A program made the position numbers and the translations under genes. Positions 26,279 through 61,489 of a stretch of 61,489 bases of DNA are shown one piece after another. Below the pieces are notes generated by a model. The model did no database searches and was not told where the DNA came from. It saw nothing but the letters and a program-made list of their open reading frames with translations. The stretch lies in the NCBI GenBank assembly GCA_017640685.1, contig JAEPQF010000003.1:1-61489 (forward strand). The letters are read 5' to 3'. Positions within the stretch are counted from its first letter, which is position 1. Each line of letters opens with the position of its first letter. Origin of the DNA: Hyphomicrobiales bacterium (GTDB lineage: Bacteria; Pseudomonadota; Alphaproteobacteria; Rhizobiales; HXMU1428-3).

Positions 26279-26473
26279 ACGACGAAGGAGCATTGCCCGT
26301 TAAGGGCAATGGGACATGGCGAAGCGTCAGCGTAGCCTGGAGTTTATGCGGTTGCTGCTGGGCAATCTAAAGCACAAAAATACATCGTCCAACGGAGGGC
26401 CTGCCGCTTTAGCAGCACGGATGCTTTGTCGGCATCTGAAGTGCTGCTATAAAGCATTAGCCCGTGAGCTAAA
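26279..26473. repeat. Mosaic hairpin repeat, copy A
   Basis: This copy has the module-1 flanks GAAGGAG and GGACATGGCGAAGCGTCAGC around the stem CATTGCCC (26291-26298) / GGGCAATG (26304-26311), then GCGGTTGC...GGGCAATC, and a closing TAGCCCGTGAG. It runs directly up to the stop codon of the TIGR03808 gene. The stem bases differ from those of other copies but pairing is kept. Confidence 0.8.
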
Positions 26474-27826
26474 TTAGATACTCACATTTCCATAAACGGC
26501 CAAATTCAAATACGCCTCAGAACTTGATTTTGAAAGATCAGGACCAATTGGCTTTTCTAAATCCATGGCACGCACAGCTCCTTTTTTCGCACCCGTAATC
26601 ATGTTGGTAGCAATAAAGGCATAACCAGCTTCAGGGTGGGTCGAAACACCAATCCCAACTTCTGCATCTCTAACCAGATTATTGTTCACTGTGACCTGAC
26701 GCATATATTTACCATAGCCAAGTGAAATTCCTTGCCCAGGAACATTTTCAACCACATTGCCAGAGACCATCGTATCAGCTTCAACGGCTATACCTATGGC
26801 AGCATTGCCTTGATATTTTTTAAGGTTCCGAATGAGGTTGCCAGTTGCTGTTGCCAGCCTGCCACCTTCATTAAAGTTGGTAATTGAAATACCAACATGC
26901 GCATCATCAACCATATTGTTAGAAATAATCGCTCCCTCAAAACCAAATTCAGAATAAAGCGCAACTTCGCCAAGTTTCGAGCAACTATTATTGAGAATTT
27001 GAATATTGTCAGCGCCATTGCCACGAACAGCTGAAAACGCACAATCGCTGATGACATTATTGGAAACAATCACATTACCGGCACGGTAAACATTCACACC
27101 ATTGCCATTTTGGCCAGTACCACCATCTTTTGTTTGGATGCGGTGAATATGGTTTTGCGAAACAATGGTACCATCAGTTCCTTTTGTTGAGCGCCAAACA
27201 AGAATGCCATTATTGCTGCAATCTGTAACGTGGTTATGAGAAATTTCTAACTGTGCTGAGTCATTGGCAAAAATGCCAGCTGAACCGCAAAGACTAATTT
27301 TATTCGAATGAATATGCCCGCCACACCCTTGCAAACTCATGCCATTTAACAATCCATCTTTGATAAAACAATGCTCGATTAAAAGATTGGGAATGTTATC
27401 AAAACTAAGGAGACCATCAACTGACTGGTCAATGTACCCTCTTGACGCCCCATCAAAAACCAAATGTTCTAAGGTGATGGTTGAGATGTTTTTCGCTGAA
27501 ACAAAAGAAGACCCTTTTGTAAACTGAAGAACAGTCTCTCCATAAACACCCTCAATATGTGTGCCTGCCCGCAAGGTGAGAGGGCCTGTTTTATAAAGTC
27601 CTCCTGGTAAGGTGAGTTTCATTTTTTCTTTTGCAGCTAAATCGATTGCAGCTTGTAGTTTTGCGGTTTGATCAGTTTTCGCATTTGGAACAAGGCCAGT
27701 AGCTGAAAAAGAGAGAGAAGCAAGTTTTAGAGGCTTTGCAGCTTTTGCTTCCTCACCATTTGCCAAGCTCGCACCAGCCGCGAGAGGAAGAGAGCCAAGA
27801 AGAAGGTCACGTCGATTTACACTCAT
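26474..27826 (-). CDS. TAT-exported right-handed beta-helix protein (TIGR03808-type)
   Basis: The N-terminus has a twin-arginine signal (NRRDLLLGSLPLAAGASLA) ending near residue 30. The remainder is rich in short repeated N-N/G-I-V/S-N-N turns such as IVSNNVISDC and ISNNMVDDAHVGI, the pattern of a parallel beta-helix like pectate lyases, from about residue 50 to 430. I recognise the layout of the TIGR03808 family of alphaproteobacteria, whose function is undefined. It probably folds before export and acts in the periplasm, possibly binding polysaccharide. The gene is alone, with repeat copy A at its 3' end. Confidence 0.85.
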   Translation of the reverse strand: MSVNRRDLLLGSLPLAAGASLANGEEAKAAKPLKLASLSFSATGLVPNAKTDQTAKLQAAIDLAAKEKMKLTLPGGLYKTGPLTLRAGTHIEGVYGETVLQFTKGSSFVSAKNISTITLEHLVFDGASRGYIDQSVDGLLSFDNIPNLLIEHCFIKDGLLNGMSLQGCGGHIHSNKISLCGSAGIFANDSAQLEISHNHVTDCSNNGILVWRSTKGTDGTIVSQNHIHRIQTKDGGTGQNGNGVNVYRAGNVIVSNNVISDCAFSAVRGNGADNIQILNNSCSKLGEVALYSEFGFEGAIISNNMVDDAHVGISITNFNEGGRLATATGNLIRNLKKYQGNAAIGIAVEADTMVSGNVVENVPGQGISLGYGKYMRQVTVNNNLVRDAEVGIGVSTHPEAGYAFIATNMITGAKKGAVRAMDLEKPIGPDLSKSSSEAYLNLAVYGNVSI

Positions 27827-28024
27827 AAATTTATGAACCTTTGGTAAACGGGGTGATTAATGACAGTATTATTACAATTAATAAACTTTGTTAACCATAA
27901 TAAAACGATTTAGTGCCTAGCCTTAATAAGTTTACTTATTGAGGGAAGAGCATAAACAAAGGCATGATCGTCCGTATACGGCTAAAAAATGCCTGTTATG
28001 TCATTTTAAGTACGGTAGAGACTG

Positions 28025-29218
28025 ATGACAGTTGAGATCAACCAAACTCAACAATTAAAAAAGAAGGTGAAGCTATTCGAAGCCATAGTCAATCGAACGC
28101 AAGATGGCATCATAGTTTTCAACCATCTTTTTCAGGTTGTTTATAGCAACAAAAATGCTGGCCAGCTTCTTGGCGCGGCACCAGAAGAGTTGCGCGGCAA
28201 GCATCTTTCAACTTTCATACCAAAAGAGAGTCATAAAAAACACGATAAATTAGTCGCAATGTTTTCAGAGTCAGAAGATGTAAGATTAGAGCTCGATGAT
28301 AAAAATAGCGTCAAATGTATGCGGTTAAACGGAGACATATTTCCAGCTAAAATCTCTATCAATAAATATACCATGACAGGTCAAGAAGCTTATATAGTTT
28401 CGTTAAGAGATGTGTCAGATATAAATACTGCAGAAGAAGAAACGAAAATTGCTGAACTTGGTCAATTTAGAGAGCAGCAGCAAAAAAAATGCTCAGCCAA
28501 AACATTACAAGTCAGCATGGAAAAAGCAGTAACTCAGATCGCAAAAATCGCTCAAGCTGTCAAAGATACTTGCGGTAACCGCTATGTTGAAGAGCAAATG
28601 GCGCAAATTTTACAAAACTCTTTTACTGCAATGAGTGTCAGTCAAAAAGCAGCATTTTATTCTGATGCTGGCCAAAAAACAGATCAATTTACTCTGGTTG
28701 ATCAATCTCTTCATGGCGCACTCGAGCGAATAAAAGCAATCGTTGAAGATGAAATTCAAAAAAAGGATATTGCAATAGCGTGGGACATTCCAACTTCAGC
28801 TAAAAAGTTTAAGCTCATGGATTGTCAAAGAGTTGAGCAAATTTTTTATAATGTTGTAGAGCACGCAACTCGTAATTTAAAACGCGGACAAATAACGTTT
28901 CAACTGGATCAATTGATGTTAGATGGTGAGAATAATCTCACTATGAATTTTGAATGCCGCAATCCGCAATTTGGCATCGCTCAACAAACTATGAACCTTG
29001 TGCTAAATGCAACTTCATCAAAAGCTGTCCCAGAAATAGAAGAACTGAAAAATGGTGGTAAATGTTTAAGGTTGGCCAAACTCATGGCTGAAGAAAATGG
29101 AGGGAGCTTAAGAGTTGTCACTCATCCAATTAATGGTACTCATATTTACCTTCAATTAAAAGAACCGCTTGTACAAGCATCGGAAGAAAAAGTCACAAAT
29201 TTAGAAGCCAGCAATTAA
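28025..29218 (+). CDS. PAS-domain protein with degraded histidine-kinase C-terminus
   Basis: Residues 15-135 form a PAS domain (EAIVNRTQDGIIVFNHLFQVVYSN, LLGAAPEELRGKHLSTFIP). A helical linker with a QQQKK stretch follows. Residues 215-390 resemble a HATPase domain (VEQIFYNVVEHATRNL in the N-box position, LRLAKLMAEENGGSLRVVT in the G2 position). I see no H-box histidine, no DXGXG G1 box, and the N-box asparagine context is altered. It is therefore probably a sensor without kinase activity, acting as a scaffold or partner. No response regulator is adjacent. Confidence 0.72.
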   Translation: MTVEINQTQQLKKKVKLFEAIVNRTQDGIIVFNHLFQVVYSNKNAGQLLGAAPEELRGKHLSTFIPKESHKKHDKLVAMFSESEDVRLELDDKNSVKCMRLNGDIFPAKISINKYTMTGQEAYIVSLRDVSDINTAEEETKIAELGQFREQQQKKCSAKTLQVSMEKAVTQIAKIAQAVKDTCGNRYVEEQMAQILQNSFTAMSVSQKAAFYSDAGQKTDQFTLVDQSLHGALERIKAIVEDEIQKKDIAIAWDIPTSAKKFKLMDCQRVEQIFYNVVEHATRNLKRGQITFQLDQLMLDGENNLTMNFECRNPQFGIAQQTMNLVLNATSSKAVPEIEELKNGGKCLRLAKLMAEENGGSLRVVTHPINGTHIYLQLKEPLVQASEEKVTNLEASN

Positions 29219-29243
29219 GAATGTGAGATAACCAAATTTTTAA

Positions 29244-30233
29244 TTACATCTCTTGCAAGGCATCATATATCCGATCAGCAGCAAGAGCAGCAGTTAATTG
29301 ACCAGTTCTTACATCCGTTTCGCAATTATTGATCAATTCGATAATCTGGTCATTTTCACTTAACCGAGAAAGAAGCCGCGCTTCTACCATTTCATGCATC
29401 CAGGTAACAGCTTGCTTGTTGCGCTTTTCTTCAAATTCACCACTTTTTGAGAGGGCCTCTTTATTCGTTTCAATATTTTCCCACAAATGATCTAGCCCTT
29501 GTCCAGTTAAACCAGAAATGGTGATAACCGGCGGTGACCAATTTTTGCTTTGTGGCGTGAGAATATGTAAGGCTGCCCGATATTCACTAGCGGCTCGTTT
29601 GGCACGCATTTCATTTTCACCATCAGCTTTATTAACGGCAATCATATCCGCAATTTCTAAAACGCCCTTCTTAATGCCTTGCAGCTCATCACCGGCACCT
29701 GGCAACATAAGACAAAGAAAAAAATCAACCATTTCTGAGACAGCTGTTTCAGATTGACCAACACCCACAGTCTCAATCAAAATAACATCAAAACCAGCCG
29801 CTTCACAAAGCGCCATTGTTTCTCTGGTTTTCTTTGTTACACCGCCAAGCGTACCCGAAGTGGGAGAGGGACGAATAAAAGCGTTGGGCTCGACACTCAA
29901 ATTTTGCATGCGCGTTTTATCACCAAGAATAGACCCACCAGTAACAGATGAACTGGGGTCAACGGCGAGCACAGCAACTTTCTTACCAATGCTTGTCAGA
30001 TACAAACCAAGCGCTTCAATTGTGGTTGATTTTCCAACCCCAGGAACACCAGTAATTCCAACTCTGAGAGCCTTTCCTGTATGAGGGAGAAGTTTGAGTA
30101 AGAGGTCTTGCGCTAGTTTTTGGTGTTCACTTTTTTGGCTTTCAACTAATGTAATGGCTCTGGCAAGAACAGTTCGATTACCGTCTAGAATACCAGTTTC
30201 AAAATCTTCAACTGTTTGCGGTCGTTTTGTCAT
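29244..30233 (-). CDS. meaB: MeaB: GTPase chaperone of methylmalonyl-CoA mutase
   Basis: The 329-residue G3E-type GTPase has GITGVPGVGKSTTIEAL (Walker A, about residues 58-75), LAVDPSS, LIETVGVGQSE (switch/Walker B) and NKADGE (G4). MeaB loads and protects adenosylcobalamin on methylmalonyl-CoA mutase; older annotations call it ArgK. No mutase gene is in the window. It faces away from the YqaA-like gene. The start ATG at 30233 precedes MTKRPQTVEDF, consistent with the family. Confidence 0.92.
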   Translation of the reverse strand: MTKRPQTVEDFETGILDGNRTVLARAITLVESQKSEHQKLAQDLLLKLLPHTGKALRVGITGVPGVGKSTTIEALGLYLTSIGKKVAVLAVDPSSSVTGGSILGDKTRMQNLSVEPNAFIRPSPTSGTLGGVTKKTRETMALCEAAGFDVILIETVGVGQSETAVSEMVDFFLCLMLPGAGDELQGIKKGVLEIADMIAVNKADGENEMRAKRAASEYRAALHILTPQSKNWSPPVITISGLTGQGLDHLWENIETNKEALSKSGEFEEKRNKQAVTWMHEMVEARLLSRLSENDQIIELINNCETDVRTGQLTAALAADRIYDALQEM

Positions 30234-30548
30234 GGTGTCAAAGGAGCTAATTTAAGGGTTGATATAGAAAAGCTGTGAGAAATTTCAACAATATATACAT
30301 AAATCACCCATTGAAAGAAACAGGCGAATGAATAACCTAAAAATCCACATTTAGACTTGGAAAAGCAAAAAAAATCGAAGGTTTAGGGCCTAGTTTAGTG
30401 AAAATTACCGACCAGAATGAAGGTTTCTCAGTGAAATAATGTTTATGTATAGTCTTTCAAGAAATAAATCATATAAGAGGCTTTAATTTCTGTCATATTC
30501 CACATACATAAAGAACAGCAATTTTAAATCATAGCCAGGTAGACCTAA
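30234..30548. other. Intergenic region between meaB and yqaA-like gene
   Basis: This 315-base AT-rich stretch separates two divergent genes and must hold both promoters. I see no convincing small ORF, repeat copy, operator or riboswitch in it. Confidence 0.5.
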
Positions 30549-31136
30549 ATGATCACTTTGGATGAAGAAAAAATACGTAAAGGTGCAACATCCCGTCGTG
30601 CTTATGGCATTTTGTCAGCGGTCTCATTCTCAGAAAGCGCAATTCTTCCACTTCCTGTTGATGCTGTTTCCATTCCGATGATGTTAGGGGCGCCATCCAA
30701 AGCATTTAGAGTGGCTCACGTCGCCCTTATTACATCAGTTTTGGGAGGCCTGCTTGGTTATTTAATCGGCTATCTTTTCTTTGAAGGTTTTGGTGATAAA
30801 ATCATCACTTATTATGGTTTTACGGAGCAATTTGAAGAATTTAAGCAAACAACAAAAGATGATTGGTGGAAAGCGGCCATCGCAATTTTCGGTGCAGCAA
30901 TTACCCCCATTCCTTTTAAACTAGTGTGCATTGGTTCTGGTGTTATGGGCGTGAACTTGCCATTGTTCATCGGAGCGGCCATGTTGGGCAGAGCCATCCG
31001 CTTTTATTTTTTCGCTATAGCGTTTAAATATCTGGGCCGACCAGTAAGGGATTTTGCTTTAAGGAATTTAAAACTAGTCGGCACTTTGACTATGATCGTA
31101 ATGATCTTAGGTTTCTTAAGTATCTATTGGCTTTAA
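30549..31136 (+). CDS. YqaA/DedA-like membrane protein (VTT domain)
   Basis: This 195-residue integral membrane protein has the amphipathic motif SFSESAILPLPVDAVSIPMML (E and P residues typical of DedA-like half-entrance), then G-X-G-X-L-GYLIGYLF, and GAAITPIPFKLVCIGSGVMGVNLPLF, the second re-entrant segment with the G-X3-P motif. DedA/VTT proteins flip lipids or maintain membrane potential. Its N-terminus KIRKGATSRRAYGI differs from large DedA proteins and fits the YqaA branch. It is monocistronic. Confidence 0.82.
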   Translation: MITLDEEKIRKGATSRRAYGILSAVSFSESAILPLPVDAVSIPMMLGAPSKAFRVAHVALITSVLGGLLGYLIGYLFFEGFGDKIITYYGFTEQFEEFKQTTKDDWWKAAIAIFGAAITPIPFKLVCIGSGVMGVNLPLFIGAAMLGRAIRFYFFAIAFKYLGRPVRDFALRNLKLVGTLTMIVMILGFLSIYWL

Positions 31137-31159
31137 TGTTTATATTAGTTTTTTAGCAA

Positions 31160-31275
31160 GTAGCTTGCGCCGGTTGCTTATTGTGGATGCCGCGACGGTT
31201 GCTGGTAGGCAACTGAAGGAGCGCCAAGAGAGTGCACATCTGAAGCAAAAAAGGGACGCTAAAAGAGGATGCAAG
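31160..31275. repeat. Mosaic hairpin repeat, copy B (partial)
   Basis: This copy contains only later modules: CGGTTGCTTATTGTGGATGCCG, CGGTTGCTGGTAGGCAACTGAAGGAGCG and GGATGCAAGTGGGCATCTCAAG. The GTTGC/GCAAC and GATGC/GCATC stems are intact. The module-1 hairpin is missing. It lies between converging genes. Confidence 0.7.
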
Positions 31276-31293
31276 TGGGCATCTCAAGTAAAA

Positions 31294-31318
31294 AAAGGAA
31301 CGCTAAAAGCGTTCCTTT
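31294..31318. terminator. Bidirectional terminator between yqaA and isochorismatase genes
   Basis: AAAGGAACGCT (31294-31304) and AGCGTTCCTTT (31308-31318) are exact reverse complements with a 3-base loop. A and T runs flank it on the two sides, fitting termination from both converging genes. Confidence 0.75.
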
Positions 31319-31340
31319 AATCTCATCAAAGCATAAAGCT

Positions 31341-31895
31341 CTAAACAATTAATTCCCGCAAAGCTTTAAAAGCCTTGCAATCATAGCGTTCGATCCATTC
31401 AAACAACACCATTTCTGTTGTGACCAAATGAATGCCCGCATCACTCATGCGAGTACACGCAGTTTCCGCAGATTTAGGATCTCGGCTGCCCACACTATCA
31501 GTAACAATAAAGACTTGATGTCCAGCCGCTTTAATTTCTAAAGCTGTTTGCAACACGCAAACATGCGCCTCACAACCGGCTAAAATAAATGAGTGTCGAC
31601 CAAGTTTGGAAAGCTCTGAAATGTAATCTTTAAAAGTCTCATCTTTCATTGCTGAAAAACTTGTCTTATCAATTATTTGAGCTGAGCCGTGCGTGGCATC
31701 ACTTACATCACTTACCGTTAGTCCAAGACCTGGAGAATATTGTTCAGTGATGACGATAGGAACAGAAAGGTGATCAGCAGCTTTAATGAGACGAATAGAA
31801 TTATCAATAACCTGATCTCGATTAGAGATAGCTGGCATCAATTTTTCTTGCTCATCTATGATTATCAAAGATGAAGATAATGCGTTTAATATCAT
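31341..31895 (-). CDS. Isochorismatase-family hydrolase
   Basis: The 184-residue protein has the cysteine-hydrolase triad pattern: LIIIDEQEKL (Asp), IDKTSFSAM (Lys) and LAGCEAHVCVLQTAL (nucleophile Cys near residue 118). It resembles the YcaC/nicotinamidase-like subgroup, with GSRDPKSAETA after the nucleophile. It likely hydrolyses a small amide or is an orphan hydrolase of unknown substrate. It is a single gene between terminator and the dapE region. Confidence 0.85.
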   Translation of the reverse strand: MILNALSSSLIIIDEQEKLMPAISNRDQVIDNSIRLIKAADHLSVPIVITEQYSPGLGLTVSDVSDATHGSAQIIDKTSFSAMKDETFKDYISELSKLGRHSFILAGCEAHVCVLQTALEIKAAGHQVFIVTDSVGSRDPKSAETACTRMSDAGIHLVTTEMVLFEWIERYDCKAFKALRELIV

Positions 31896-31948
31896 AATAA
31901 TTTTTTCTCAAAATAAAATCATTGCTCTTGAAAAATAAGGAGCAAATT

Positions 31949-32047
31949 ATGAATGGTAAAAAGGCAACTGCCTTTAGATTGAATAAAAATTGTGCTGTTA
32001 AATATTCAGCAAAAATAGACCGATTAAAAAATATTAATCAGTCATAA
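31949..32047 (+). CDS. Candidate small protein, 32 residues
   Basis: This short ORF starts with ATG after AAGGAG at a good distance (six bases) and encodes a basic, Lys/Asn-rich peptide ending RLKNINQS. A GGCAACTGCC mini-palindrome lies near its start. It fills the gap between the isochorismatase and dapE genes. There is no homology I recognise, so it could be chance in AT-rich sequence. Confidence 0.3.
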   Translation: MNGKKATAFRLNKNCAVKYSAKIDRLKNINQS

Positions 32048-32133
32048 ACTAACAAAAGTTAATCAAGAAATCAAAGGGCTAAGTCTTAGAACGTCTTTAA
32101 GTTTACTAGTTAAAAAAATAAAAATATAAAAAT

Positions 32134-33285: not shown

Positions 33286-33338
33286 GGATTTTATTCTTCT
33301 TGTTTGTTGATTTAATTATTTCCGAGAGATTAAGTCGT

Positions 33339-33803: not shown

Positions 33804-33893
33804 GAAATTTAACTCTCTAGATTGTGAAAAGCCACAGCAACACAATAAGCATAAATTGGAAAACTGCCAAATGGAAGATGAGAGGACCGATGC

Positions 33894-34364: not shown

Positions 34365-34402
34365 ATGGAAGAGCCCTTAAACAAAAATAACGAGTGTAAC
34401 GA

Positions 34403-40007: not shown

Positions 40008-40152
40008 CGGCCACTAACAAGCCGTAAACGTTCCCAGTTTCGAGTAGTACCTGAAAAACCTTTATATTTCGTTTGCCTAGAGAGAGCGGGCACTTTCAGT
40101 GTAAAGGCAGTGAACAAAATGAAAGGAATAACTATAAGAATAAAGATACACA

Positions 40153-40306
40153 AAGAAGGAGTGACGCCCCTTCGGCGTCAGGACATGGCGTAGCGTCAGC
40201 GTAGCCCGTCGCGTTGCGACGCACCTCGTAGGCTCAAACGCCTTAGCGTTTGAAATAGCCGTGAGAGAATAATAACGACGGTTGCTAGTGGGCAACTGAA
40301 GGAGCG
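40153..40306. repeat. Mosaic hairpin repeat, copy C
   Basis: Four paired stems are visible in order: TGACGCC/GGCGTCA (40162-40180), CGTCGC/GCGACG (40207-40221), CAAACGC/GCGTTTG (40235-40252) and GTTGC/GCAAC (40281-40296). The flanks AGAAGGAG, GGACATGGCG, CACCTCGTAGGC and ATAGCCGTGAGAG are shared with other copies. The region 40008-40152 before it shows no gene. Confidence 0.85.
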
Positions 40307-41026: not shown

Positions 41027-41196
41027 CCGAAGAAGGAGCTCAGCCCACTTCGGGCTGAGGGACATGACGAAACGCTGTTGTTACTTGCGGATGCCAAGTG
41101 GGCATCTGAAGCACACACAAGGCCACCTAAAGCGCAATTAAAAAACGCCGCACCTCGTAGGGCCTTGCCGCTTTAGCGGCAGAATAGCCCGTGAGA
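41027..41196. repeat. Mosaic hairpin repeat, copy D
   Basis: Stems are CTCAGCCC/GGGCTGAG (41039-41059), GATGCC/GGCATC (41090-41106) and GCCGCT/AGCGGC (41167-41180). Flanks GAAGAAGGAG, GGACATGACGAA, GCACCTCGTAGG and AATAGCCCGTGAGA match the other copies. It is in the same gap as copy E, 35 bases away. Confidence 0.85.
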
Positions 41197-41230: not shown

Positions 41231-41393
41231 TTACGAAGAAGGAGTGACGCCTTTTCGGTGTCAGGACATGGCGAAGAGTCAGCGTAGACCGGCGCAGCGC
41301 GGTTGCTAGTGGGCAACCTAAAGCGCAATAAAAAAGAGCCGCACCTCGTAGGCCGGTGAGCTTCAGCTCACCGAATAGCAGTGAGAGAGAAAA
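41231..41393. repeat. Mosaic hairpin repeat, copy E
   Basis: Stems are TGACGCC/GGTGTCA (41245-41263, one G-T pair), GGTTGC/GCAACC (41301-41318) and CGGTGAGC/GCTCACCG (41354-41373). The flanks ACGAAGAAGGAG, GGACATGGCGAAG, GCACCTCGTAGG and TAGCAGTGAGAG are as in the family. It ends 15 bases before the rpoH stop. Confidence 0.85.
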
Positions 41394-41408: not shown

Positions 41409-42272
41409 TTAATTAGCCGCTGCAACCACAGCTTCTTGCACTTTTTCAAACGCACGAACTTCAATCTGGCGAATGCGCTCGCGGCTCACACCATGTTCTT
41501 GGCTAAGCTCTTCAAGGGTCTGCGGTGTTTCACTTAATCGGCGCGCCTCAAAAATCTTGGCTTCACGTTCATTAAGAACACCCATAGCATCTTTCAAAAG
41601 ATCAAGACGATGATCAAGCTCTTGGCTATCACCTAGGGCGGTTTCCTGGTCAATTTCATCATCAACCAACCAGTCTTGCCACTCGCCACTTTCGCTTTCT
41701 TTGCTCAACGGAGCGTTTAATGAAGCGTCACCCTGCATGCGTTGGTTCATAGAAACCACATCATCTTCAGGCACACCGAGGCGATTGGCAATTTCAGAAA
41801 TTTGCTCGGGTTTTAGGTCACCATCTTCATAAGCGTTAAGCTGAGATTTAACTTTGCGTAAGTTAAAAAACAGCTTTTTTTGAGATGAAGTCGTGCCAAG
41901 TTTCACAAGGCTCCATGAGCGAAGGACATATTCTTGAATAGAGGCTCTAATCCACCACATAGCATAGGTCGCCAAACGAAAGCCTTTTTCTGGGTCAAAC
42001 TTTTTCACAGCCTGCATTAAGCCGACATTACCCTCAGAAACAACTTCTCCAATAGGCAAGCCATAGCCACGATAACCCATAGCAATTTTGGCAACCAATC
42101 TAAGGTGTGATGTAACCAGTTTTTGAGCGGCGTTCCGGTCATTATGCTCGCGCCAGCATTTAGCCAGCATATATTCCTCTTGTGGTTCTAACATAGGAAA
42201 TTTGCGCACTTCAGAAAGATACTTCTGTAAGCCGCCTTGACCTGTAGTAACTGTAGGTAGATTTGTAGTCAT
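41409..42272 (-). CDS. rpoH: RNA polymerase heat-shock sigma factor RpoH
   Basis: The 287-residue sigma-70-type factor has region 2 with YRGYGLPIGEVVSEGNVGLMQA and YAMWWIRASIQEYVLRSWSLVK, including the RpoH-type QEYVLRSW core, and region 4 with EHGVSRERIRQIEVRAF. It directs transcription of chaperone and protease genes. It lies directly after rluD on the same strand, a pairing often seen in alphaproteobacteria. Two repeat elements occupy its 3' flank. Many alphaproteobacteria carry more than one rpoH. Confidence 0.95.
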   Translation of the reverse strand: MTTNLPTVTTGQGGLQKYLSEVRKFPMLEPQEEYMLAKCWREHNDRNAAQKLVTSHLRLVAKIAMGYRGYGLPIGEVVSEGNVGLMQAVKKFDPEKGFRLATYAMWWIRASIQEYVLRSWSLVKLGTTSSQKKLFFNLRKVKSQLNAYEDGDLKPEQISEIANRLGVPEDDVVSMNQRMQGDASLNAPLSKESESGEWQDWLVDDEIDQETALGDSQELDHRLDLLKDAMGVLNEREAKIFEARRLSETPQTLEELSQEHGVSRERIRQIEVRAFEKVQEAVVAAAN

Positions 42273-48248: not shown

Positions 48249-48251
48249 AAA

Positions 48252-54849: not shown

Positions 54850-54877
54850 GTGAAAAATCTCTGTAAAAAATGTAATT

Positions 54878-54905
54878 AAATGGCGCTGAAATTTCAGCGC
54901 CATTT
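54878..54905 (+). terminator. Terminator of the che operon
   Basis: The 28-base palindrome centred at 54891 has arms AAATGGCGCTGAAA and TTTCAGCGCCATTT with no loop mismatch, followed by further T. It lies 29 bases after cheR. Confidence 0.85.
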
Positions 54906-54929
54906 TTATTTGTAAACTTAATAATTTAT

Positions 54930-55115
54930 CAGCGCTTTAGCGCGGTTGCTTTGCGGATGCTAGTGGGCATCTTAAGTACAGAAAAGGCAACCTGAAGCGC
55001 AAATAAAAGCGCGGTTGCATATTGCGGATGCCGTGTGGGCATCTGAAGCACAGAAAAGCCAACTGAAGCACGTATAAAATGCAGCCCCGAGCAAAGCAAA
55101 AAATAGCCGTGAGAA
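54930..55115. repeat. Mosaic hairpin repeat, copy F
   Basis: Two successive GCGGATGC...GGGCATC modules (54953-54971 and 55025-55044) are preceded by GCGCGGTTGC and separated by ...GAAGCGCAAATAAAA. The module-1 hairpin is missing. A closing AATAGCCGTGAGAAA is present. It directly follows the che terminator. Confidence 0.8.
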
Positions 55116-55135
55116 AAATAATTTAAAAACTTCCT

Positions 55136-55345
55136 AAACGAAGAAGGAGTTCAGTCCTTTTCGGACTGAAGGACATGATGAAGCGCCAGCGCGGTTGCGA
55201 GTGGGCAATCTAAAGCGCAGAGAAAAAAGCAGCCTGGCGCAAGCGCCGCCCACACGGAGGCATTCAGGCTTTGCCTGAATTTGCCGTGAGACAAAACAGC
55301 GCGGTTGCTAGTGGGCAACTAAAGCGCAAATAAAAAAGAGCAGTC
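55136..55345. repeat. Mosaic hairpin repeat, copy G
   Basis: Stems are TTCAGTCC/GGACTGAA (55150-55170) and ATTCAGGC/GCCTGAAT (55262-55280), plus a GTTGC/GCAAC unit near its end. Flanks ACGAAGAAGGAG, GGACATGATGAAGCG and TTGCCGTGAGA match. It ends about 50 bases before the ctrA stop, so copies F and G fill the gap between cheR and ctrA. Confidence 0.85.
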
Positions 55346-55395
55346 AATTAAGAGTGCTCTTTTAAATCAATTGTCGATTTTGGAAGTGAAAAGAT

Positions 55396-56121
55396 TTAAG
55401 CAGCTTCGTGCTCACCTTCATGTTCCAATTGTAACGGACTATCATCATCCGCATCACGCAACACATAACCCCGTCCCCAAACAGTCTCAATATAGTTCTT
55501 ACCTTCACATGCTGAAGAAAGCTTTTTACGAAGCTTACAAATAAACACATCAATAATCTTCAACTCAGGCTCATCCATACCGCCATAAAGATGGTTTAAG
55601 AACATTTCTTTCGTCAAAGTTGTACCTTTGCGAAGAGAAAGAAGTTCAAGCATTTGATATTCTTTGGAAGTAAGGTGAACACGTTGGCCATCAACTTCAA
55701 CAGTTTTAGCGTCAAGGTTCACTTTAAGGTCACCTGTTGTAATAACAGATTGTGCATGGCCTTTCGAACGACGAACAATTGCATGAATACGTGCAACAAG
55801 CTCATCCTTATGGAAAGGTTTAGTCATGTAGTCATCAGCCCCAAAGCCAAGACCACGAACTTTATCATCAATTCCAGCCAAGCCAGATAGAATCAAGATA
55901 GGTGTTTGAACTTTACTAACACGTAAAGTTTTCAAAACTTCATACCCGCTCATGTCAGGTAAGTTAATGTCGAGAAGGATAATATCATAATCATAGATCT
56001 TACCAAGATCCGCGCCTTCTTCTCCAAGATCAGTCGTGTAGACGTTAAAACCTTCAGACTGAAGCATCAGATCGATGCTTTGCGCTGTAGCGCTATCATC
56101 CTCAATGAGTAGTACCCTCAT
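55396..56121 (-). CDS. ctrA: Cell-cycle response regulator CtrA
   Basis: The 241-residue OmpR-type regulator has [20 protein letters not shown] at its start, the phosphorylated Asp51 in [18 protein letters not shown], and a winged-helix DNA-binding domain from about residue 125 ([24 protein letters not shown], then [14 protein letters not shown]). It ends in Ala-Ala, the residues recognised by ClpXP in Caulobacter CtrA. It controls cell-cycle and motility genes and faces away from fliI. I prefer the ATG at 56121 over the ORF start 26 codons upstream because it begins the canonical receiver and follows an AGAGGGG. Confidence 0.95.
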
Positions 56122-56758
56122 TATATGCCCCTCTTTATTAGCCGTTAACCGGCGACTGCCCATAAATTTAAAATTTAATCCAAGTGTCCAGAATACCACT
56201 CGATTTAAATCTTCTCTTTACAAAGTTACGGGCAAGAAGTTAACAAATCCTAATTTGTATTGAAAAAACAATAACATCACTCGGTTTTTCTAATAAAAAC
56301 GGCACTTTTCTTAAGAATTGAGTTATATTCTCTTAAGAAAAACGACATCTTCATAAAAAAACTTTAAACAAAATGTCTCTTCGTAAAGCCACATCACAAG
56401 AGACAGACGAGTTACTTTGGATGATAATGAGGTACGCTAAATATATTTTTATTAGGTGCTCTTTAATTTATTACCAAAACGTTACCTGATTTGCCCGAAT
56501 CAACGCAACCAAAAATGGCAAAAATTAGTTTATTTTTTTTAACCTAAAGAATTCACTTATAAAATTTATCTATCGCCGTCACATAAATCTAAATACGAGT
56601 GTGTAAAACCACTGCAAAGACGTTACGTAACAATGCCCCCCATTATACTCATGACTGTTAAACTGATAAAATCACCTTCATCAAAATTGGGAATGAAACA
56701 CAAGGTAACCAATTCATTAACGAATGCTTAATAACGTGAGTGCCATTGTCGAACTGAT
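56122..56758. promoter_or_regulatory. ctrA-fliI divergent regulatory region
   Basis: This 637-base gap is long for such a region and holds no gene I can support. It contains a near-CtrA box TTAACAAATCCTAAT at 56240-56254, an imperfect inverted repeat built on CTTAAGAA at 56306-56342, a GANTC methylation site (GAATC near 56496) and an exact CtrA box before fliI. It likely carries more than one ctrA promoter. Confidence 0.6.
56717..56731 (+). promoter_or_regulatory. CtrA box (TTAA-N7-TTAA) upstream of fliI
   Basis: TTAACGAATGCTTAA is an exact match to the consensus. It ends 27 bases before the fliI start codon, so it could overlap a -35 region with a short leader, in keeping with CtrA activation of flagellar genes in alphaproteobacteria. 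Confidence 0.65.
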
Positions 56759-58150
56759 TTGTCAAAGCCATTGATTGATTCTCCCACAACCAACAAAAGA
56801 GGTCACTTTTTGAAAGCCTTTAAACAAGAATTAGCAAACATCCAGACCAAGAAAATCTATGGTCGAGTGAAAGCTGTTCAAGGTGTGATGATAGAAATCG
56901 CTGGACCACTGGCAGCCTTCGGCATTGGCGCTCGCTTAAAAATAGAGCGCGAAAAAGCGCAACCGATTATGGTCGAGGTGGTAGGGTTTAAAGAAGGTGT
57001 TGCCTTAGCTATGCCTTATGGCAGTTTGGATGGCATAAGCATGGGCGCAAAAGCGCACCTGCACTCGAACAATAATGATGTGGCTCCAACTGAAGGTTGG
57101 TTGGGCCGTGTGGTGAATGCACTGGGTGAGCCAATTGACGGGAAAGGCCCCTTAGAAACAGGTCACAATCCAGTACCCCTCCGTAATTCACCGCCTCCAG
57201 CTAATCAGAGAAATAGAGTAGGCGAGCCGCTCGATCTTGGTGTAAAAGCCCTCAACTGCTTTGCGACTTGTTGTATCGGCCAACGGTTGGGTATTTTCGC
57301 AGGCTCCGGTGTTGGTAAATCTGTTCTTATGTCTATGCTGACGAAAAACGCCTCTGCTGATGTTTTTATCATTGGGTTAATCGGTGAAAGAGGCCGCGAA
57401 GTGCAAGAGTTCATCGAAGATAATCTGGGTGAAGAAGGCTTGAAACGCTCTGTTGTTATTGTAGCAACATCAGATGAAGCAGCGCTAATGCGGCGACAAG
57501 CCGCTTACATGACTATGAGCCTTGCAGAATTTTTCAGAGACAAAGGACGAAGCGTCCTTTGCATGATTGATAGTATCACTCGTTTTGCTATGGCAGGGCG
57601 TGAAATTGGCCTCTCCGTTGGCGAACCTCCCGCCACCAAAGGTTACACACCAACGGTATTTGCAGAATTACCAAGACTTTTAGAGCGCGCCGGACCTGGA
57701 ACAAATCAGGGCGCAATAACAGGGCTTTTCACAGTCTTGGTTGAGGGAGACGACCATAATGAGCCCGTTGCTGATGCTGTTCGCGGAATTTTGGATGGTC
57801 ACATTGTAATGGAGCGTGCCATTGCGGAACGCGGGCGTTATCCAGCTATTAACGTTCTCAAATCGGTATCCCGAACAATGCCAGAATGTGTGCCAGAACA
57901 ATACAGACCAGCCATTTATAAAGCCCGACAATATATGAGCACATTCTATGATATGGAGGAAATCATCCGTATGGGCGTCTACAGGCAGGGTTCTAACCCC
58001 GAAACAGACGCTGCAATAGATTATACAGAACGGCTGGAACAGTTTTTGCAGCAAGGTAAATCAGAAGCGACCTCCCTAAATGAGGGCTATAAAGAATTAG
58101 CTCAGATTTTGGGTGAAAATTGTCAAAATGTTAATGATGAATCAGTATGA
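56759..58150 (+). CDS. fliI: Flagellum-specific ATPase FliI
   Basis: The 463-residue F1-beta-like ATPase has Walker A in [15 protein letters not shown] near residue 180, [15 protein letters not shown] after it, [17 protein letters not shown] (Walker B region) and a C-terminal [11 protein letters not shown] stretch. It powers the flagellar type III export gate. Translation seems to begin at TTG without a clear ribosome site; I found no better in-frame start because a stop lies five codons upstream. The CtrA box is just before it. fliJ follows by 42 bases. Confidence 0.93.
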
Positions 58151-58192
58151 TAAATTTTTATATTGGTTCGAATTGTGTAAAGGGTATCGAAC

Positions 58193-58609
58193 ATGAAATC
58201 TCGCGAAACTCTTATTCGTTTGCGCAAATTTGACGTGGACGAAAAGCGTCAAAAAGTAGCTGCCATTGAGGCAATGATAAACGACTTTAAATCTATGGCT
58301 GATGATCTGGATAATCAGGTGAAGTCAGAGCAACAGCGCGCTGGCGTTGATGATGTCAATCACTATGCTTATCCAACATTTGCAAAAGCAGCTGTTCAAA
58401 GACGTGATAACCTCATGATCTCTATTGCTGACTTAGAAGCAAAAATGGATGCGGCTAATGAAGAGCTACAAGATGCGATGAAAGCATTAAAAAACGTAGA
58501 AATTCTTGAAGAGCGCGATATGGCACGCACGCGTGTTAAAGCGGCAAGAAATGAGCAAAATGCGTTGGATGAATTTGCTCAAAACATGTCACGTCTAGTT
58601 GTGCGCTAA
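58193..58609 (+). CDS. fliJ: Flagellar export chaperone/stalk FliJ
   Basis: The 138-residue protein is almost all helix with heptads (LIRLRKFDVDEKRQKVAAIEA, and LEAKMDAANEELQDAM), the form of FliJ that inserts into the FliI hexamer. Position directly after fliI gives the identification; sequence alone shows only a coiled coil. AAAGGG precedes the ATG. A clear terminator follows about 55 bases downstream. Confidence 0.85.
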   Translation: MKSRETLIRLRKFDVDEKRQKVAAIEAMINDFKSMADDLDNQVKSEQQRAGVDDVNHYAYPTFAKAAVQRRDNLMISIADLEAKMDAANEELQDAMKALKNVEILEERDMARTRVKAARNEQNALDEFAQNMSRLVVR

Positions 58610-58663
58610 GTTTATAGCGCCTCAACTTAGTCTGCAAAGACATCATAGAAATTTCAAATTTAC

Positions 58664-58690
58664 AAAACGCAGCTTAAAAGCTGCGTTTTT
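58664..58690 (+). terminator. Terminator after fliJ
   Basis: AAACGCAGCTT (58665-58675) and AAGCTGCGTTT pair exactly with a 2-base loop and a T-run follows. It ends the fliIJ unit. Confidence 0.85.
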
Positions 58691-58873
58691 GCTTTGATGG
58701 TCAGATGAGCATCAAGAATGAATATCTATTGAAATTTTACCATTCTAAATACGTTGCTTTATAATGACGTCAGAAGAAATACCTTTGAAAATGAGCAAAA
58801 CAAGACGCATACACCTTGTTAATTTTCAGATCTAATGCAAAATAAGACCTTAAATTGAGTTTTGAGGTTTTTT

Positions 58874-59494
58874 ATGCATATGCGTTGGTTACAGTTCTGG
58901 TCAGTTAAGGCCCAATTTCTTATGAGCCGACCTATTAAAACACTCCTCAAGTTTGGGGCGTGTTTGAGCATTTTACTGTGCCTTTCCGCCTGCGCTCAAA
59001 ACCCAATTGAAATTCCTAAAGTCAATCTTTCATCCGTTAAAGTTCCACTTACAGATGTCGATGTGACATCATCTCTAAGTGGTGAAATTGTTGAAGGTGA
59101 TTATATCAGGGCGTATAGCCGCATCGCTTTAGGCCTTCGTCAATGTTGGTTGGTTGAAGGCTCGCCTTTGGAAAAAGCTCAGTTCTTTGCAAGAAATAAA
59201 GCTGACGGCTCTGAGAAAAAAGCAGATATTTTCATTCATAAACCAGCCATTCATCCAAAGCGCGGCCCGCGCATTTTCTCCATTCACCTAAAACCACGCT
59301 CGAACGGCACCGAAGTGAGATTAGACAATCGCCATCTCACACCACAAAATGAAACAAATGTCACCAAAGACATTCGAAATTGGATTAAAGGCGAAAAAAG
59401 CTGCACGGACCACGCCGCCCAAAAACAAAAAGAACAACATCAAACAAGTGCAACTGAAAAAACAGCAAAAATCACATTACCGGTTAGAAAATAG
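58874..59494 (+). CDS. Putative lipoprotein
   Basis: A lipobox LCLSACAQ places the lipidated cysteine near residue 40 of this start, which suggests a long n-region; the ATG at 58922 would give a more typical signal peptide, but the ATG at 58874 has GAGG six bases ahead. The mature part has a folded core (YSRIALGLRQCWLVEGSPL, IFSIHLKPRSNGTEVRLDN) and a disordered Lys/Gln-rich tail. No family is recognised; the core is reminiscent of small envelope-binding domains. It is a single gene after the fliIJ terminator. Confidence 0.65.
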   Translation: MHMRWLQFWSVKAQFLMSRPIKTLLKFGACLSILLCLSACAQNPIEIPKVNLSSVKVPLTDVDVTSSLSGEIVEGDYIRAYSRIALGLRQCWLVEGSPLEKAQFFARNKADGSEKKADIFIHKPAIHPKRGPRIFSIHLKPRSNGTEVRLDNRHLTPQNETNVTKDIRNWIKGEKSCTDHAAQKQKEQHQTSATEKTAKITLPVRK

Positions 59495-59664
59495 CATTGT
59501 AAAAATTGAGGTCTTTGCCTATGCCCCGGGATTGCAAAATCGTCTGGGATGACGAAGTCAGATAGGGGGGAGCGGGCGAATAATATTTTTTTAAAGAGCG
59601 GCAAGATTAAGTCTTGAAATTGTCAAAAGCTCCTGTCAGTCTTCTTGTATCAAGGGGGGTGTCT

Positions 59665-61230
59665 ATGACACTGCAGCGGCAAGCGGTTTTTATCAGCTCA
59701 ACTTCTAAAGACCTCGAAGAAGTTAGAGGGGCAGTCCATGAGGCCATACGAGAGACAAGCTATCTTGAGCCTGTTAGCATGGAATATTTTTTAGCGGATC
59801 CACGCACGCCACAGCAATTATGCGAAGAAAAGGTGCAGGCATGCGCGTTATTTCTTGGCATCATTGGCGACCGCCGCGGTTGGGAGCCAGAGGGAGACAG
59901 AGGCCAGCGCTCCATCACCCAAATTGAATATGAAACAGCGATTGCTGAAAAGATCCCACCTTATATGGCTATTCTGCCAAAGGGGGCCCTTGCACCACAC
60001 ACTGATGACAAAGAACAAGATGAGCAAAAACAAGCCCGCCATCAGGCTTTTCGGACAAAGCTGCTAAGCAGTCACGGCTGCATTGATAAATTTGAAAACA
60101 AAGACAAGCTGGCAAGACAATTGGTGCAATCAATCACCAACCAGCTCATGGCAGAGAGTTTTAAACAACAGGAGCAGCAAACAGCCACCGAACCATTGTC
60201 TGCTGATATTGAAGCCAGTCAACGCAAAGCGGTGGAAGAAGCCATTGAAGAGCATATGCTCGACCCGGAGCAGATTTTAGCTGAAGGAGCTGAAATTGAC
60301 ACCGCAACACTCATTGATCAATTTGCTGAAAAGGCTGAGCAAACTCAGGCCAAAGCGCTTGCTTATTACAAATATATGGGCGCTTTAGCCTTTCAAAACC
60401 ACACCGAAAAGGCCCTCACAGCCTATACCCGCGCCGTCACCTTGGACCCGGATGATGCCGAGAGCTGGAACCAGCTGGGTATTATTCAAAAGAGGCTTGG
60501 GCAATTGCAGGCTGCAAAACAAAGCTATAAAAAAGTCCTGGCCCTTGGCAATCAGCTTGCAGACAAAACACTCATTGCCATTGCCACCGGCAATTTGGGT
60601 CTGATCTACCAGATCCAAGGCGACCTGACCCGTGCCGAAGAGCATCACCGCCGCGCCCTGGTCTTGGAGGAAGAGCTGGGCCGGAAAGAGGGAATGGCCA
60701 ATCAGTTGGGTAATTTGGGTCTGATCTACCGGACCCAAGGCGACCTGCCCCGTGCCGAAGAGCACCACCGCCGTGCGCTTGCCTTGGAGGAAGAGCTGGG
60801 CCGGAAAGAGGGAATGGCCAGTGAGTTGGGCAATTTGGGTCTGATCTACCGGACCCAAGGCAACCTGCCCCGCGCCGAAGAGCATTTTCGTCGCACACTG
60901 GTCTTGGAGGAAGAGCTGGGCCGAAAAGAGGGAATTGCCAGAGCTTTGGGCAATTTGGGTGGGGTCTACCAGACCCAAGGCGATTTGCCCCGTGCCGAAG
61001 AACATCACCACCGCGCGCTGGCCTTGAATGAAGAGCTGGGCCGGAAAGAGGGAATGGCCAACCAGTTGGGCAATTTGGGTCTGATCTACAAGGCCCATGG
61101 CGACTTGCCGTGTGCTTGCCAACATTGGCATCAGGCCCTCACTTTATTCAAAGAAGTGGGCATGCAGCCTCAAATTGAGCTGGTGCAAAGTTGTTTAGAT
61201 GAAGCGGGCTGCTCGGAACAAGCATCATAA
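59665..61230 (+). CDS. DUF4062-TPR protein
   Basis: Residues 1-165 form a DUF4062 domain (AVFISSTSKDLEEVRGAVHEAI, CALFLGIIGDRRGW, SITQIEYETAIAEK), a Rossmann-like fold related to TIR/nucleoside-processing domains and common at the N-terminus of STAND-type proteins. After a helical linker, a TPR array begins near residue 235, ending in almost identical 40-residue units (NLGLIYRTQGDLPRAEEHHR). There is no NB-ARC or NTPase domain between them. Start ATG at 59665 follows GGGGGG. Base composition is richer in GC than the neighbours. Role unproven; a sensing or defence function is plausible. Confidence 0.85.
   Translation: MTLQRQAVFISSTSKDLEEVRGAVHEAIRETSYLEPVSMEYFLADPRTPQQLCEEKVQACALFLGIIGDRRGWEPEGDRGQRSITQIEYETAIAEKIPPYMAILPKGALAPHTDDKEQDEQKQARHQAFRTKLLSSHGCIDKFENKDKLARQLVQSITNQLMAESFKQQEQQTATEPLSADIEASQRKAVEEAIEEHMLDPEQILAEGAEIDTATLIDQFAEKAEQTQAKALAYYKYMGALAFQNHTEKALTAYTRAVTLDPDDAESWNQLGIIQKRLGQLQAAKQSYKKVLALGNQLADKTLIAIATGNLGLIYQIQGDLTRAEEHHRRALVLEEELGRKEGMANQLGNLGLIYRTQGDLPRAEEHHRRALALEEELGRKEGMASELGNLGLIYRTQGNLPRAEEHFRRTLVLEEELGRKEGIARALGNLGGVYQTQGDLPRAEEHHHRALALNEELGRKEGMANQLGNLGLIYKAHGDLPCACQHWHQALTLFKEVGMQPQIELVQSCLDEAGCSEQAS
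60589..61108 (+). repeat. 120-bp tandem repeat inside DUF4062-TPR gene
   Basis: Four full units and a partial fifth begin at 60589, 60709, 60829, 60949 and 61069 with an exact 120-base period. Each unit starts GGCAATTTGGGT and contains GAAGAGCTGGGCCG. Most differences are single bases, so the units are much closer in DNA than unrelated TPRs usually are. Confidence 0.9.
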
Positions 61231-61275
61231 ATCAATTTCTCTTGCCTCACCCTAGTGCATGTCGCACAAAAGTGG

Positions 61276-61297
61276 ATCCCGGCTTGGAGGCCGGGAT
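61276..61297. repeat. Short dispersed palindrome
   Basis: ATCCCGGC (61276-61283) and GCCGGGAT (61290-61297) pair around a TTGGAG loop and are followed by GACAAAGGTGAG. Hairpins with these words are widely scattered in alphaproteobacterial intergenic regions; a degraded relative (CCCGGGATTGC...TGGGATGACGAAG) is at 59523-59557. Confidence 0.6.
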
Positions 61298-61333
61298 GAC
61301 AAAGGTGAGATCCTGCCTCAAACTCGATCCTGA

Positions 61334-61489
61334 TGCATGAAGAAGGAGTTTAGCCCTTTTCGGGCTGAGGACATGGCGAAGCGTCAGTGCAGCCTGGTGC
61401 TTAACACGGTTGCTTATTGCGGATGCCTTGTGGGCATCTGAAGCACAGAAATGCGGATGCCTTGTGGGCATCTGAAGCACATCAAAAAT
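61334..61489. repeat. Mosaic hairpin repeat, copy H (continues beyond window)
   Basis: The module-1 stem is TTAGCCC/GGGCTGA (61350-61368, one T-G pair) within GAAGAAGGAG and GGACATGGCGAAGCGTCAG. Two tandem GCGGATGCC...GGGCATCTGAAGCACA modules follow and reach the window end. Confidence 0.85.

What the first reader, a model, noticed from the sequence alone, without database searches (positions are those of the whole stretch)
26279..61489. Dispersed mosaic element with covarying hairpin stems
Eight copies (A-H, at 26.3, 31.2, 40.2, 41.0, 41.2, 54.9, 55.1 and 61.3 kb) share flanks such as GAAGAAGGAG, GGACATGGCGAAGCGTCAGC, CACCTCGTAGGC and TAGCCCGTGAGA. Three types of hairpin sit between the flanks. 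In the first type the stems read CATTGCCC/GGGCAATG, TGACGCC/GGCGTCA, CTCAGCCC/GGGCTGAG, TGACGCC/GGTGTCA, TTCAGTCC/GGACTGAA and TTAGCCC/GGGCTGA: both arms change together, with G-T pairs tolerated. The second type alternates GTTGC/GCAAC and GATGCC/GGCATC. The third has stems of unrelated sequence in the same frame. Compensated stems imply selection on, or a copying mechanism that preserves, the folded form. All copies are intergenic, several next to stop codons. This may be a REP/MITE-like family or a structured RNA.
Basis: seen in the sequence. Interest (0 to 1): 0.78.

Follow-up and report, generated by a model that had tools for sequence, protein, structure and literature searches.

The report
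Replication-oriented four-hairpin bacterial repeat
Scattered through this alphaproteobacterial genome are well over a hundred copies of a short non-coding DNA element that folds into four hairpins and nearly always points the same way relative to DNA replication, while in some distant relatives the same core sits just behind transfer-RNA genes; what spreads it or keeps it pointed that way is unknown.

Summary
The own genome has 137 matches at E<=0.001 (capped search). Fold: P1-ACATG-P2-P3-CCTCGGAGGC-P4-AATAGCCGTGAGAGAAAA. Compensation is overwhelming: 29 of 32 pairs have two-sided changes; 95.6% of cells pair, against 78% shuffled. New facts: (1) orientation follows replication, not transcription: 149 of the 150 listed (best) copies in two congeners, and 183 of 191 in sampled stretches, lie on the lagging-strand side; 6 of the 8 exceptions stand in 5'-to-5' pairs. 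(2) 42 of 42 inserts of 12 nt or more lie in hairpin loops. (3) G.T outnumbers A.C mismatches 118:44. (4) Close pairs: 50 tandem, 13 5'-to-5', 0 3'-to-3'. (5) In other alphaproteobacteria 13 of 129 core hits lie within 60 nt of a tRNA gene, all antisense, 12 of them 7-9 nt from its 3' end. It fails the REP, CIR and Rfam tests that I could run; neither Y1 transposase nor reverse transcriptase tracks it. Best reading: a non-autonomous structured repeat whose spread is coupled to replication forks; mover unknown.

The parts
26279..26469 (+). type-1 copy A, with type-2-like inserts in the P3/P4 part (read by eye); ends TAGCCCGTGAGC
   Evidence: R1 hit 26279-26431, 66 bits; sequence
40150..40266 (+). 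type-1 copy C, compact full element: P1 40162-40180, P2 40187-40206, P3 40207-40221, P4 40225-40265
   Evidence: R1 hit 128.8 bits; folding and alignment
41027..41196 (+). type-1 copy D, with a type-2 insert that the model places in the P3 loop
   Evidence: R1 hit 75.8 bits; insert
41233..41386 (+). type-1 copy E, with a type-2 insert in the P3 loop
   Evidence: R1 hit 85 bits; insert
55138..55291 (+). type-1 copy G, with a type-2 insert in the P2 loop
   Evidence: R1 hit 73.8 bits; insert
61337..61489 (+). type-1 copy H, cut by the contig end; two type-2 hairpins follow its P1/P2 part
   Evidence: R1 hit 61337-61449, 57.7 bits; sequence
   Evidence: sequence; pattern starts at 31197 and 31267
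   Evidence: sequence; pattern starts at 54955 and 55026
40276..40304 (+). type-2 hairpin downstream of copy C
   Evidence: sequence; pattern start 40280
55297..55325 (+). type-2 hairpin downstream of copy G
   Evidence: sequence; pattern start 55303

Best explanation
The element is a non-coding, non-autonomous interspersed repeat of about 119 nt that works as a folded single strand. Its conserved unpaired segments (GAAGAAGGAG, GGACATG, CCTCGGAGGC, AATAGCCGTGAGAGAAAA) hold four hairpins whose stem sequences are free to change as long as they pair. SHOWN: the four-hairpin fold; orientation tied to replication and not to transcription; nesting of other repeats in hairpin loops; tandem and 5'-to-5' pairing; location at tRNA 3' ends for some copies in other lineages. 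INFERRED: copies are gained when a folded single strand is joined at or behind the replication fork, in one orientation; the same route carries the smaller type-2 repeat, which obeys the same strand rule. The ancestral landing place was probably the 3' end of tRNA genes, on the opposite strand, and one genus in or near Rhodomicrobium (Hyphomicrobiales) later filled ordinary intergenic gaps with it. The moving enzyme is unknown and is probably neither a RAYT/IS200 Y1 transposase nor a reverse transcriptase.
For: Copies: 137 matches at E<=0.001 in the own genome; 150 and 146 in G002 and G004, 150 candidates scored in each; 30 of 101 relatives positive. Fold: A3, 148 distinct rows, 29 of 32 pairs with two-sided change, covariation score 0.453 against 0.148 shuffled and at most 0.056 slid. 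Polarity: 149 of the 150 listed copies on the contig's majority strand; in all copies of the sampled stretches 183 of 191 (G002 103 of 108, G004 80 of 83), 6 of the 8 exceptions in 5'-to-5' pairs; AT-skew sign agrees in 40 of 40 stretches; the one 16S gene found in each of G002 and G004 lies on the strand opposite to the copies of its contig; own genome 104 of 106, type 2 54 of 54, type 2 on type 1's strand 71 of 72; G032, another family, 27 of 27, GC-skew sign agreeing in 7 of 7 stretches. Not transcription: same/same 27 against opposite/opposite 26 neighbours. Loop nesting 42 of 42. Close pairs 50 tandem, 13 divergent, 0 convergent. tRNA ends: 13 of 129 pattern hits within 60 nt of a tRNA, 13 of 13 in one geometry. 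Differences between sister species: 17 of 67 and 6 of 64 syntenic copies have no partner copy in the matched interval.
Against: No near-identical dispersed copies: the best paralog in a sample of 148 is 93%, the median of the best hits 84%, so no recent burst is seen. No clean empty site with a target duplication was found; several 'empty' sites are tandem copy-number changes or rearranged. In 10 clean orthologous pairs joints and stems change a little less than the flanks (22 of 1006 against 44 of 1159, p 0.03; with loop and insert sites 28 of 1160, p 0.056), which suits function as well as a selfish repeat; an earlier looser set of 5 pairs showed no difference. RNA-parameter folding energies do not differ between strands. 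In G032 the AT skew agrees in only 4 of 7 stretches. Families G018 and G065 show weak polarity, 19 of 28 and 2 of 4. No mover was identified. In G002 and G004 no copy was found close to the tRNAs of the sampled stretches (one search read).
Confidence: 0.5

Rival explanations
1. A host-functional polar signal: the folded strand is read by a replication, segregation or repair factor, as other polar chromosome signs are (KOPS- or Chi-like in logic, recalled), and wrong-way copies are selected out.
For: Orientation 96-99% kept across diverged genomes of the genus; orthologous differences mostly keep pairing, 9 of 12; joints and stems change less than flanks, p 0.03, or 0.056 with loops; dense clusters in some regions, 9 listed copies in G002:C2 347-413 kb.
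Against: 71 of 101 relatives show no hit and 379 of 385 genomes of the class show none at E<=1e-4 in a coarse search that scored 12 candidates per genome; wrong-way copies exist, mostly in 5'-to-5' pairs; copy number and composition drift between sister species; tRNA-adjacent copies in other lineages.
Confidence: 0.25
2. An RNA-level retroposon: a structured RNA with a 3' A-rich tail is reverse transcribed at the fork and inserted (a bacterial SINE).
For: All three repeat types end in A-rich 3' tails, types 2 and 3 mostly on the same strand as type 1; G.T favoured over A.C on the top strand, 118 to 44; location at tRNA 3' ends in other lineages.
Against: RVT_1 was not found in G001-G004, G006, G007 and G032, which hold copies; the own genome and G005 have one match each; no transcript evidence; A-rich intergenic DNA could give such tails anyway.
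Confidence: 0.1
3. Classical REP/RAYT or IS200/IS605-derived MITE moved by a Y1 HUH transposase in single-stranded DNA.
For: Folded single strand, purine foot GGAG before P1, polarity to replication, 5'-to-5' dimers; some element-bearing genomes do hold PF01797, 7 of the 30 R2-positive against 10 of the 71 others.
Against: PF01797 found in only 1 (G004) of the 8 genomes of the genus, and not in G032; foot is not GT[AG]G; by my recollection of IS608 the active strand lies on the lagging template, whereas here the strand that seems to fold has the lagging-nascent sequence.
Confidence: 0.08
4. No selection: palindromes are kept perfect by template switching between arms during replication, and the rest is shared descent.
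For: Strand-specific replication context; wholesale stem replacement.
Against: G.T excess over A.C on one strand after correcting by unpaired sites, p about 9e-6 without correction for relatedness; one-sided G.T differences stand at orthologous sites; joint sequences near-invariant.
Confidence: 0.07

Closest known systems
REP / BIME / REPIN families with RAYT (GTAG-tagged REPs; PMC6006769 and PMC3733652, passages seen)
   Same: intergenic, high copy, hairpin with a conserved foot, dimers, likely single-strand processing
   Different: four hairpins and ~119 nt instead of one hairpin of 21-65 nt; foot GGAG; Y1 transposase not found in 7 of 8 genomes of the genus; strong replication polarity; nested repeats in loops
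CGTC-tagged REPs of Alphaproteobacteria (PMC3733652; sections 6 and 14 read, other passages seen)
   Same: same class of bacteria, stems with changed sequences, head-to-head dimers with conserved spacers
   Different: no CGTC foot before P1, no CCA tail, four-hairpin architecture
CIR, Caulobacter CcrM-associated intergenic repeats (Chen and Shapiro 2003, known here only through PMC2229807, section 7 read)
   Same: ~110 bp, intergenic, structured arms joined by a linker, Alphaproteobacteria
   Different: CIRs carry GANTC; here 1 of 148 copies does, against about 52 expected in shuffled copies; four arms, not two
RIME, Rhizobium-specific intergenic mosaic elements (Osteras 1995; paper not held; seen only in the reference list of PMC2873474, otherwise recalled)
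   Same: intergenic mosaic with palindromes in rhizobia (recalled)
   Different: sequence could not be compared; blastn of one copy against plasmids gave no match
IS200/IS605-type elements (PMC6006769, passages seen)
   Same: folded single strand and replication polarity
   Different: no transposase linked; apparent folding strand opposite to the lagging template

Membership tests
GTAG-REP / RAYT | 5' GT[AG]G tetranucleotide at the foot of the hairpin | tested here: not met
   Foot before P1 is GGAG: G 0.98, G 0.98, A 0.93, G 0.89 over 148 distinct rows (columns 9, 11-13)
GTAG-REP / RAYT | a RAYT/TnpA-REP (Y1) gene in the genome | tested here: not met
   PF01797 in 1 of 8 genomes of the genus (G004), none in the own genome, 96.7% complete; over all 101 genomes 7 of 30 R2-positive and 10 of 71 others
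CGTC-REP | CGTC foot (or TGTC/CCTC), 8-9 bp stem, CCA tail | tested here: not met
   Foot of P1 is GGAG; 3' end GTGAGAGAAAA; definition from PMC3733652 section 6. P2-P4 were not scanned for such tags
CIR | conserved GANTC in a hairpin loop | tested here: not met
   1 of 148 copies has any GANTC
CIR | two long arms with a linker | tested here: not met
   four hairpins
RIME | sequence identity to RIME1/RIME2 | not testable with these tools
   paper not held; the only indirect test is no blastn match in plasmids
Any Rfam 15 family | covariance-model match | tested here: not met
   0 matches at gathering score in the window; in 8 loci at E<=1 one match only, sR28 at L050:1240-1293 (E 0.033, below its gathering score), outside the element matches of that locus
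DNA-transposon MITE | terminal inverted repeats and target-site duplication | tested here: inconclusive
   No end-to-end inverted repeat seen in the consensus by eye; no clean empty site to read a duplication
Retroelement | reverse transcriptase in the genome | tested here: not met
   RVT_1 in 2 of 8 genomes of the genus, G000 and G005; not in G002, G004 or G032

The most novel reading that the evidence does not exclude
A class of replication-polar mobile hairpin arrays, born at the 3' ends of tRNA genes, spread by a still unknown fork-coupled machinery that also moves unrelated small hairpins and drops them into the loops of folded strands.
Probability: 0.3. Interest if true: 0.85.

Novelty: new variant of a known kind. 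Interest (0 to 1): 0.68.

Why it matters
I know of no bacterial intergenic repeat described with so strict a tie to replication (recalled; the searches made are named in the report). Here 96-99% polarity holds in one genus for the four-hairpin element, and in the own genome for a second, unrelated repeat type as well; the element also keeps it in a second family. How such repeats spread then becomes directly testable: a mover that acts on one strand at the fork, or a host factor that reads the folded strand. The tRNA 3'-end placement in other orders gives a possible origin, and the loop nesting gives a target rule that can be assayed.

Tried and rejected
Y1 transposase as mover: not supported, found in 1 of 8 genomes of the genus; 7 of 30 element-positive and 10 of 71 other genomes hold it. 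Reverse transcriptase: not supported, 2 of 8. Transcription-coupled orientation or one-way terminator: rejected, because neighbours both on the element's strand and both on the other strand are equally common (27 and 26) and the avoidance of gene starts is symmetric. Known RNA family: none. Phage, plasmid or virus origin: no match, weak tests with one copy or one strict pattern. Coding element: GAAGGAG and ACATG look like a ribosome site and start codon, but copies of other families have ACAAG. Recent burst: no near-identical dispersed copies in the sample. Folding-energy difference between strands: none with RNA parameters, small with DNA parameters, 69 of 111, so the strand call rests on the mismatch counts. 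Literature: 9 of 10 searches used; words of the core sequence gave 7 papers (6 listed), none looked relevant in the listing, though one Caulobacter paper (PMC5182065) holds one of the words and was not opened; Osteras 1995, Chen and Shapiro 2003 and the 2001 S. meliloti chromosome paper are not held.
Full report
WHAT IS THERE. The window is contig C164 of a 3.5-Mb, 230-contig genome. G005, a congener, has contigs of 752,317 and 434,460 bp, the lengths of two contigs of the MAG named Rhodomicrobium sp. DHS20C08, so the host is an alphaproteobacterium in or near that group. The window carries six type-1 copies, all on +. Model R1 (7 sequences, 119 positions) finds 141 places in the own genome at E<=1, 137 of them at E<=0.001 (150 of 529 candidates scored). 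In 100 relatives plus the own genome, R1 hits 21 of 101 and the core model R2 (P2-P3-P4) 30 of 101; both include all seven congeners, with 18 or more R1 matches each although only 36 candidates were scored per genome. In a draw of the class R2 hits 6 of 385 at E<=1e-4 with 12 candidates scored per genome.

ANATOMY. Consensus, 5' to 3': a weak CTATAC, GAAGAAGGAG, P1 (7-8 bp, loop about 5), GGACATG, P2 (GGC..GCC, also GAC..GTC, or a 6-bp hairpin), P3 (CGGCGC..GCGCCG type), a joint such as CCCCTCGGAGGC, P4 (7-8 bp with the GGC/GCC foot and an AATA bulge), GCCGTGAGAGAAAA. On A3 (the best 150 of 156 matches, 148 distinct) 95.6% of cells pair, 29 of 32 pairs have two-sided changes, 806 cells against 235 shuffled, and slid structures drop to 30-43% paired. 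The alignment was fitted to the structure, which leans the count in its favour; the size of the effect is far beyond that.

WHICH STRAND FOLDS. Leaving out one conserved G.T pair and one misaligned pair, mismatches are G.T 118 and A.C 44, with 110 others. At conserved unpaired sites C-to-T is 24 of 443 and G-to-A 50 of 1183, so mutation alone predicts near equality (binomial p 9e-6, not corrected for relatedness). This says that the top strand as written is the one that folds. Against it: RNA-parameter energies do not differ between strands (mean -48.4 and -48.3, top lower in 49 of 111 copies), and DNA-parameter energies favour the top strand only slightly (69 of 111).

POLARITY. Of 296 copies found in G002 and G004, the best 150 were listed; 149 lie on the majority strand of their contig. 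Among all copies in the stretches that I fetched or that came as loci from these two genomes, merged where stretches overlap, 183 of 191 do (103 of 108 and 80 of 83); of the 8 wrong-way copies 6 are half of a 5'-to-5' pair and 2 stand alone. In 40 of 40 sampled stretches of up to 20 kb the element strand is the A-rich one; the GC3 skew has the expected sign in 39 (one is zero), while whole-sequence GC skew is weak or contrary in many low-skew stretches (copies were not masked). In the window, copies masked, GC3 skew is -0.035 and AT3 skew +0.123, as expected for + copies, though the overall GC skew is +0.018. The one 16S gene found in each of G002 and G004 lies opposite to the copies of its contig; none was found in G005, G032 or G018. 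By the general rule that leading strands are G- and T-rich (abstract of PMC3174206 as shown in the listing), the element has the lagging-nascent sequence. In the own genome 104 of 106 type-1 matches on contigs with two or more agree; type 2 agrees 54 of 54, and sits on type 1's strand in 71 of 72 (type-2 list cut at 100 of 143). G005 gives 34 of 35, G007 17 of 18, G032 of another family 27 of 27, G068 4 of 4; G018 19 of 28 and G065 2 of 4, both of family f12, where many copies stand in divergent pairs (listed matches only). In the 20 stretches of G005 and G032 the GC-skew sign agrees in 19 (not L281); the AT skew agrees in 13 of 13 for G005 but only 4 of 7 for G032. Transcription does not explain it: for 85 copies with ORFs on both sides, 27 have both neighbours on the element's strand and 26 both on the other; 28 lie in convergent and 4 in divergent gaps, where all gaps over 60 nt number 58 convergent, 83 divergent and 245 tandem (of 110 copies 9 were inside ORFs and 16 lacked a neighbour).

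ARRANGEMENT. Among 283 distinct matches in the alignments A2, A3 and A5 (some weak ones in other families included), pairs within 400 nt are 50 tandem, 13 divergent and 0 convergent (a first count with overlapping loci gave 40, 11 and 0). In the listed R2 hits of G018 and G065, pairs with starts less than 500 nt apart are 4 tandem and 9 divergent, 0 convergent; two of the nine are among the thirteen. Five of the eleven divergent spacers printed share a TTATGAATTCATAA-like core. Inserts of 12 nt or more number 42 in the 148 rows, and the model places all 42 in apical loops: P3 24, P1 7, P4 7, P2 4, although apical loops make up 30 of 119 model positions. They are mostly type-2 hairpins or a type-3 unit (AAGATCAG...GCTGATCGCAAAAA); of the seven in P1, three are in reverse orientation. 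Type 2, type 3 and type 1 end in A-rich tails.

CHANGE IN PLACE. G002 and G004 are syntenic over blocks of about 80-97% identity. Of 67 syntenic G002 copies 17, and of 64 G004 copies 6, have no partner copy in the matched interval (98 and 81 tried, overlapping stretches not merged). Several absences are tandem copy-number changes and the junctions are rarely clean. Of 26 one-to-one pairs, 10 had both flanks alike: unpaired joints differ at 7 of 386 sites, stems 15 of 620, loop and insert sites 6 of 154, flanks 44 of 1159; joints plus stems against flank gives p 0.03, with loops p 0.056. Of 12 one-sided differences with a standard pair in at least one species, 9 are standard in both. L105:11655 with L081:1841 shows an A-T/C-G compensation in P4 at one locus. 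These numbers are small, and a looser earlier set gave no difference between element and flank (5 pairs).

tRNA LINK. Of 129 matches in them, 13 have a tRNA within 60 nt, and all 13 have the tRNA on the other strand just past the element's 3' end: 12 at 7-9 nt and one at 28 (21 matches had any tRNA in their locus). In 15 genomes of other lineages 20 copies, largely the same ones, were checked: 11 are 7-9 nt from a tRNA and one at 28; five more (L354, L360, L361, L366, L370) are followed at 9 nt by TGG without a called tRNA there; three (L346, L349, L351) are not. In 2 of 13 such places (L137, L172) the far side of the element repeats the first 14 nt of the tRNA end, in what I read as the P1 hairpin. 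In the genus: none of 10 loci of G002 and G005 is next to a tRNA, but L177 of G005 is 7 nt from a tRNA-Arg and the weak match G005:C1:1176999-1177078 ends 26 nt from a tRNA-Leu in the same geometry (positions).

HOW IT PROBABLY WORKS. I favour a non-autonomous repeat whose copies enter in one orientation because the joining step sees a folded single strand at the fork. The loop nesting fits insertion into exposed loops, or loss of copies that break stems. The mover is not the obvious one: Y1 in 1 of 8 and reverse transcriptase in 2 of 8 genomes of the genus. A host-read polar sign is the strongest rival.

KNOWN OR NEW. It works like REPs in general terms but fails their defining foot and enzyme; it is not a CIR by the GANTC test and matches no Rfam family. 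RIME could not be compared. A prior description under another name is possible: the papers most likely to hold one are not in the library, and the searches made were.

Noticed in passing
L103:4694-4865, L090:16405-16576, L010 and others: A third repeat, about 54 nt with outer stem GATCAGC/GCTGATC and an A-tail, sits in P3 loops of several copies.
   Followed up: partly
L030, L044, L087, L090, L094 spacers of divergent pairs: Divergent pairs share a palindromic TTATGAATTCATAA-like centre, as if the pair were a composite unit.
   Followed up: partly
148 distinct copies of alignment A3: GANTC, the CcrM methylation site, is nearly absent: 1 of 148 copies against about 52 in mononucleotide shuffles.
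   Followed up: partly
G002:C2 347-413 kb, G004:C14: Copy density looks higher where GC skew is weak, perhaps a terminus region or an acquired segment.
   Followed up: partly
L049, L056, L059, L116: In some families the core sits between TAGAGC..GGAGTGATTCCG-like palindromes that recall (from memory) common Rhizobiales intergenic repeats, so the core may nest in RIME/CIR-like elements.
   Followed up: no
L066, L308, L339: Tandem arrays with a unit of about 134-138 nt; between sister species (L308, L339) the copy number differs.
   Followed up: partly
window 60454-61173: 120-nt tandem repeats are coding: TPR repeats of a DUF4062-TPR protein (59614-61230).
   Followed up: partly
window 41409-42272 and 55396-56199: A sigma-70-type factor (RpoH-like by recollection) and a response regulator (CtrA-like by recollection) lie next to copies E and G.
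   Followed up: no
type-1 consensus, GAAGGAG before P1 and ACATG after it: Looks like a ribosome-binding site and start codon separated by a hairpin; copies of other families have ACAAG, so probably coincidence.
   Followed up: partly
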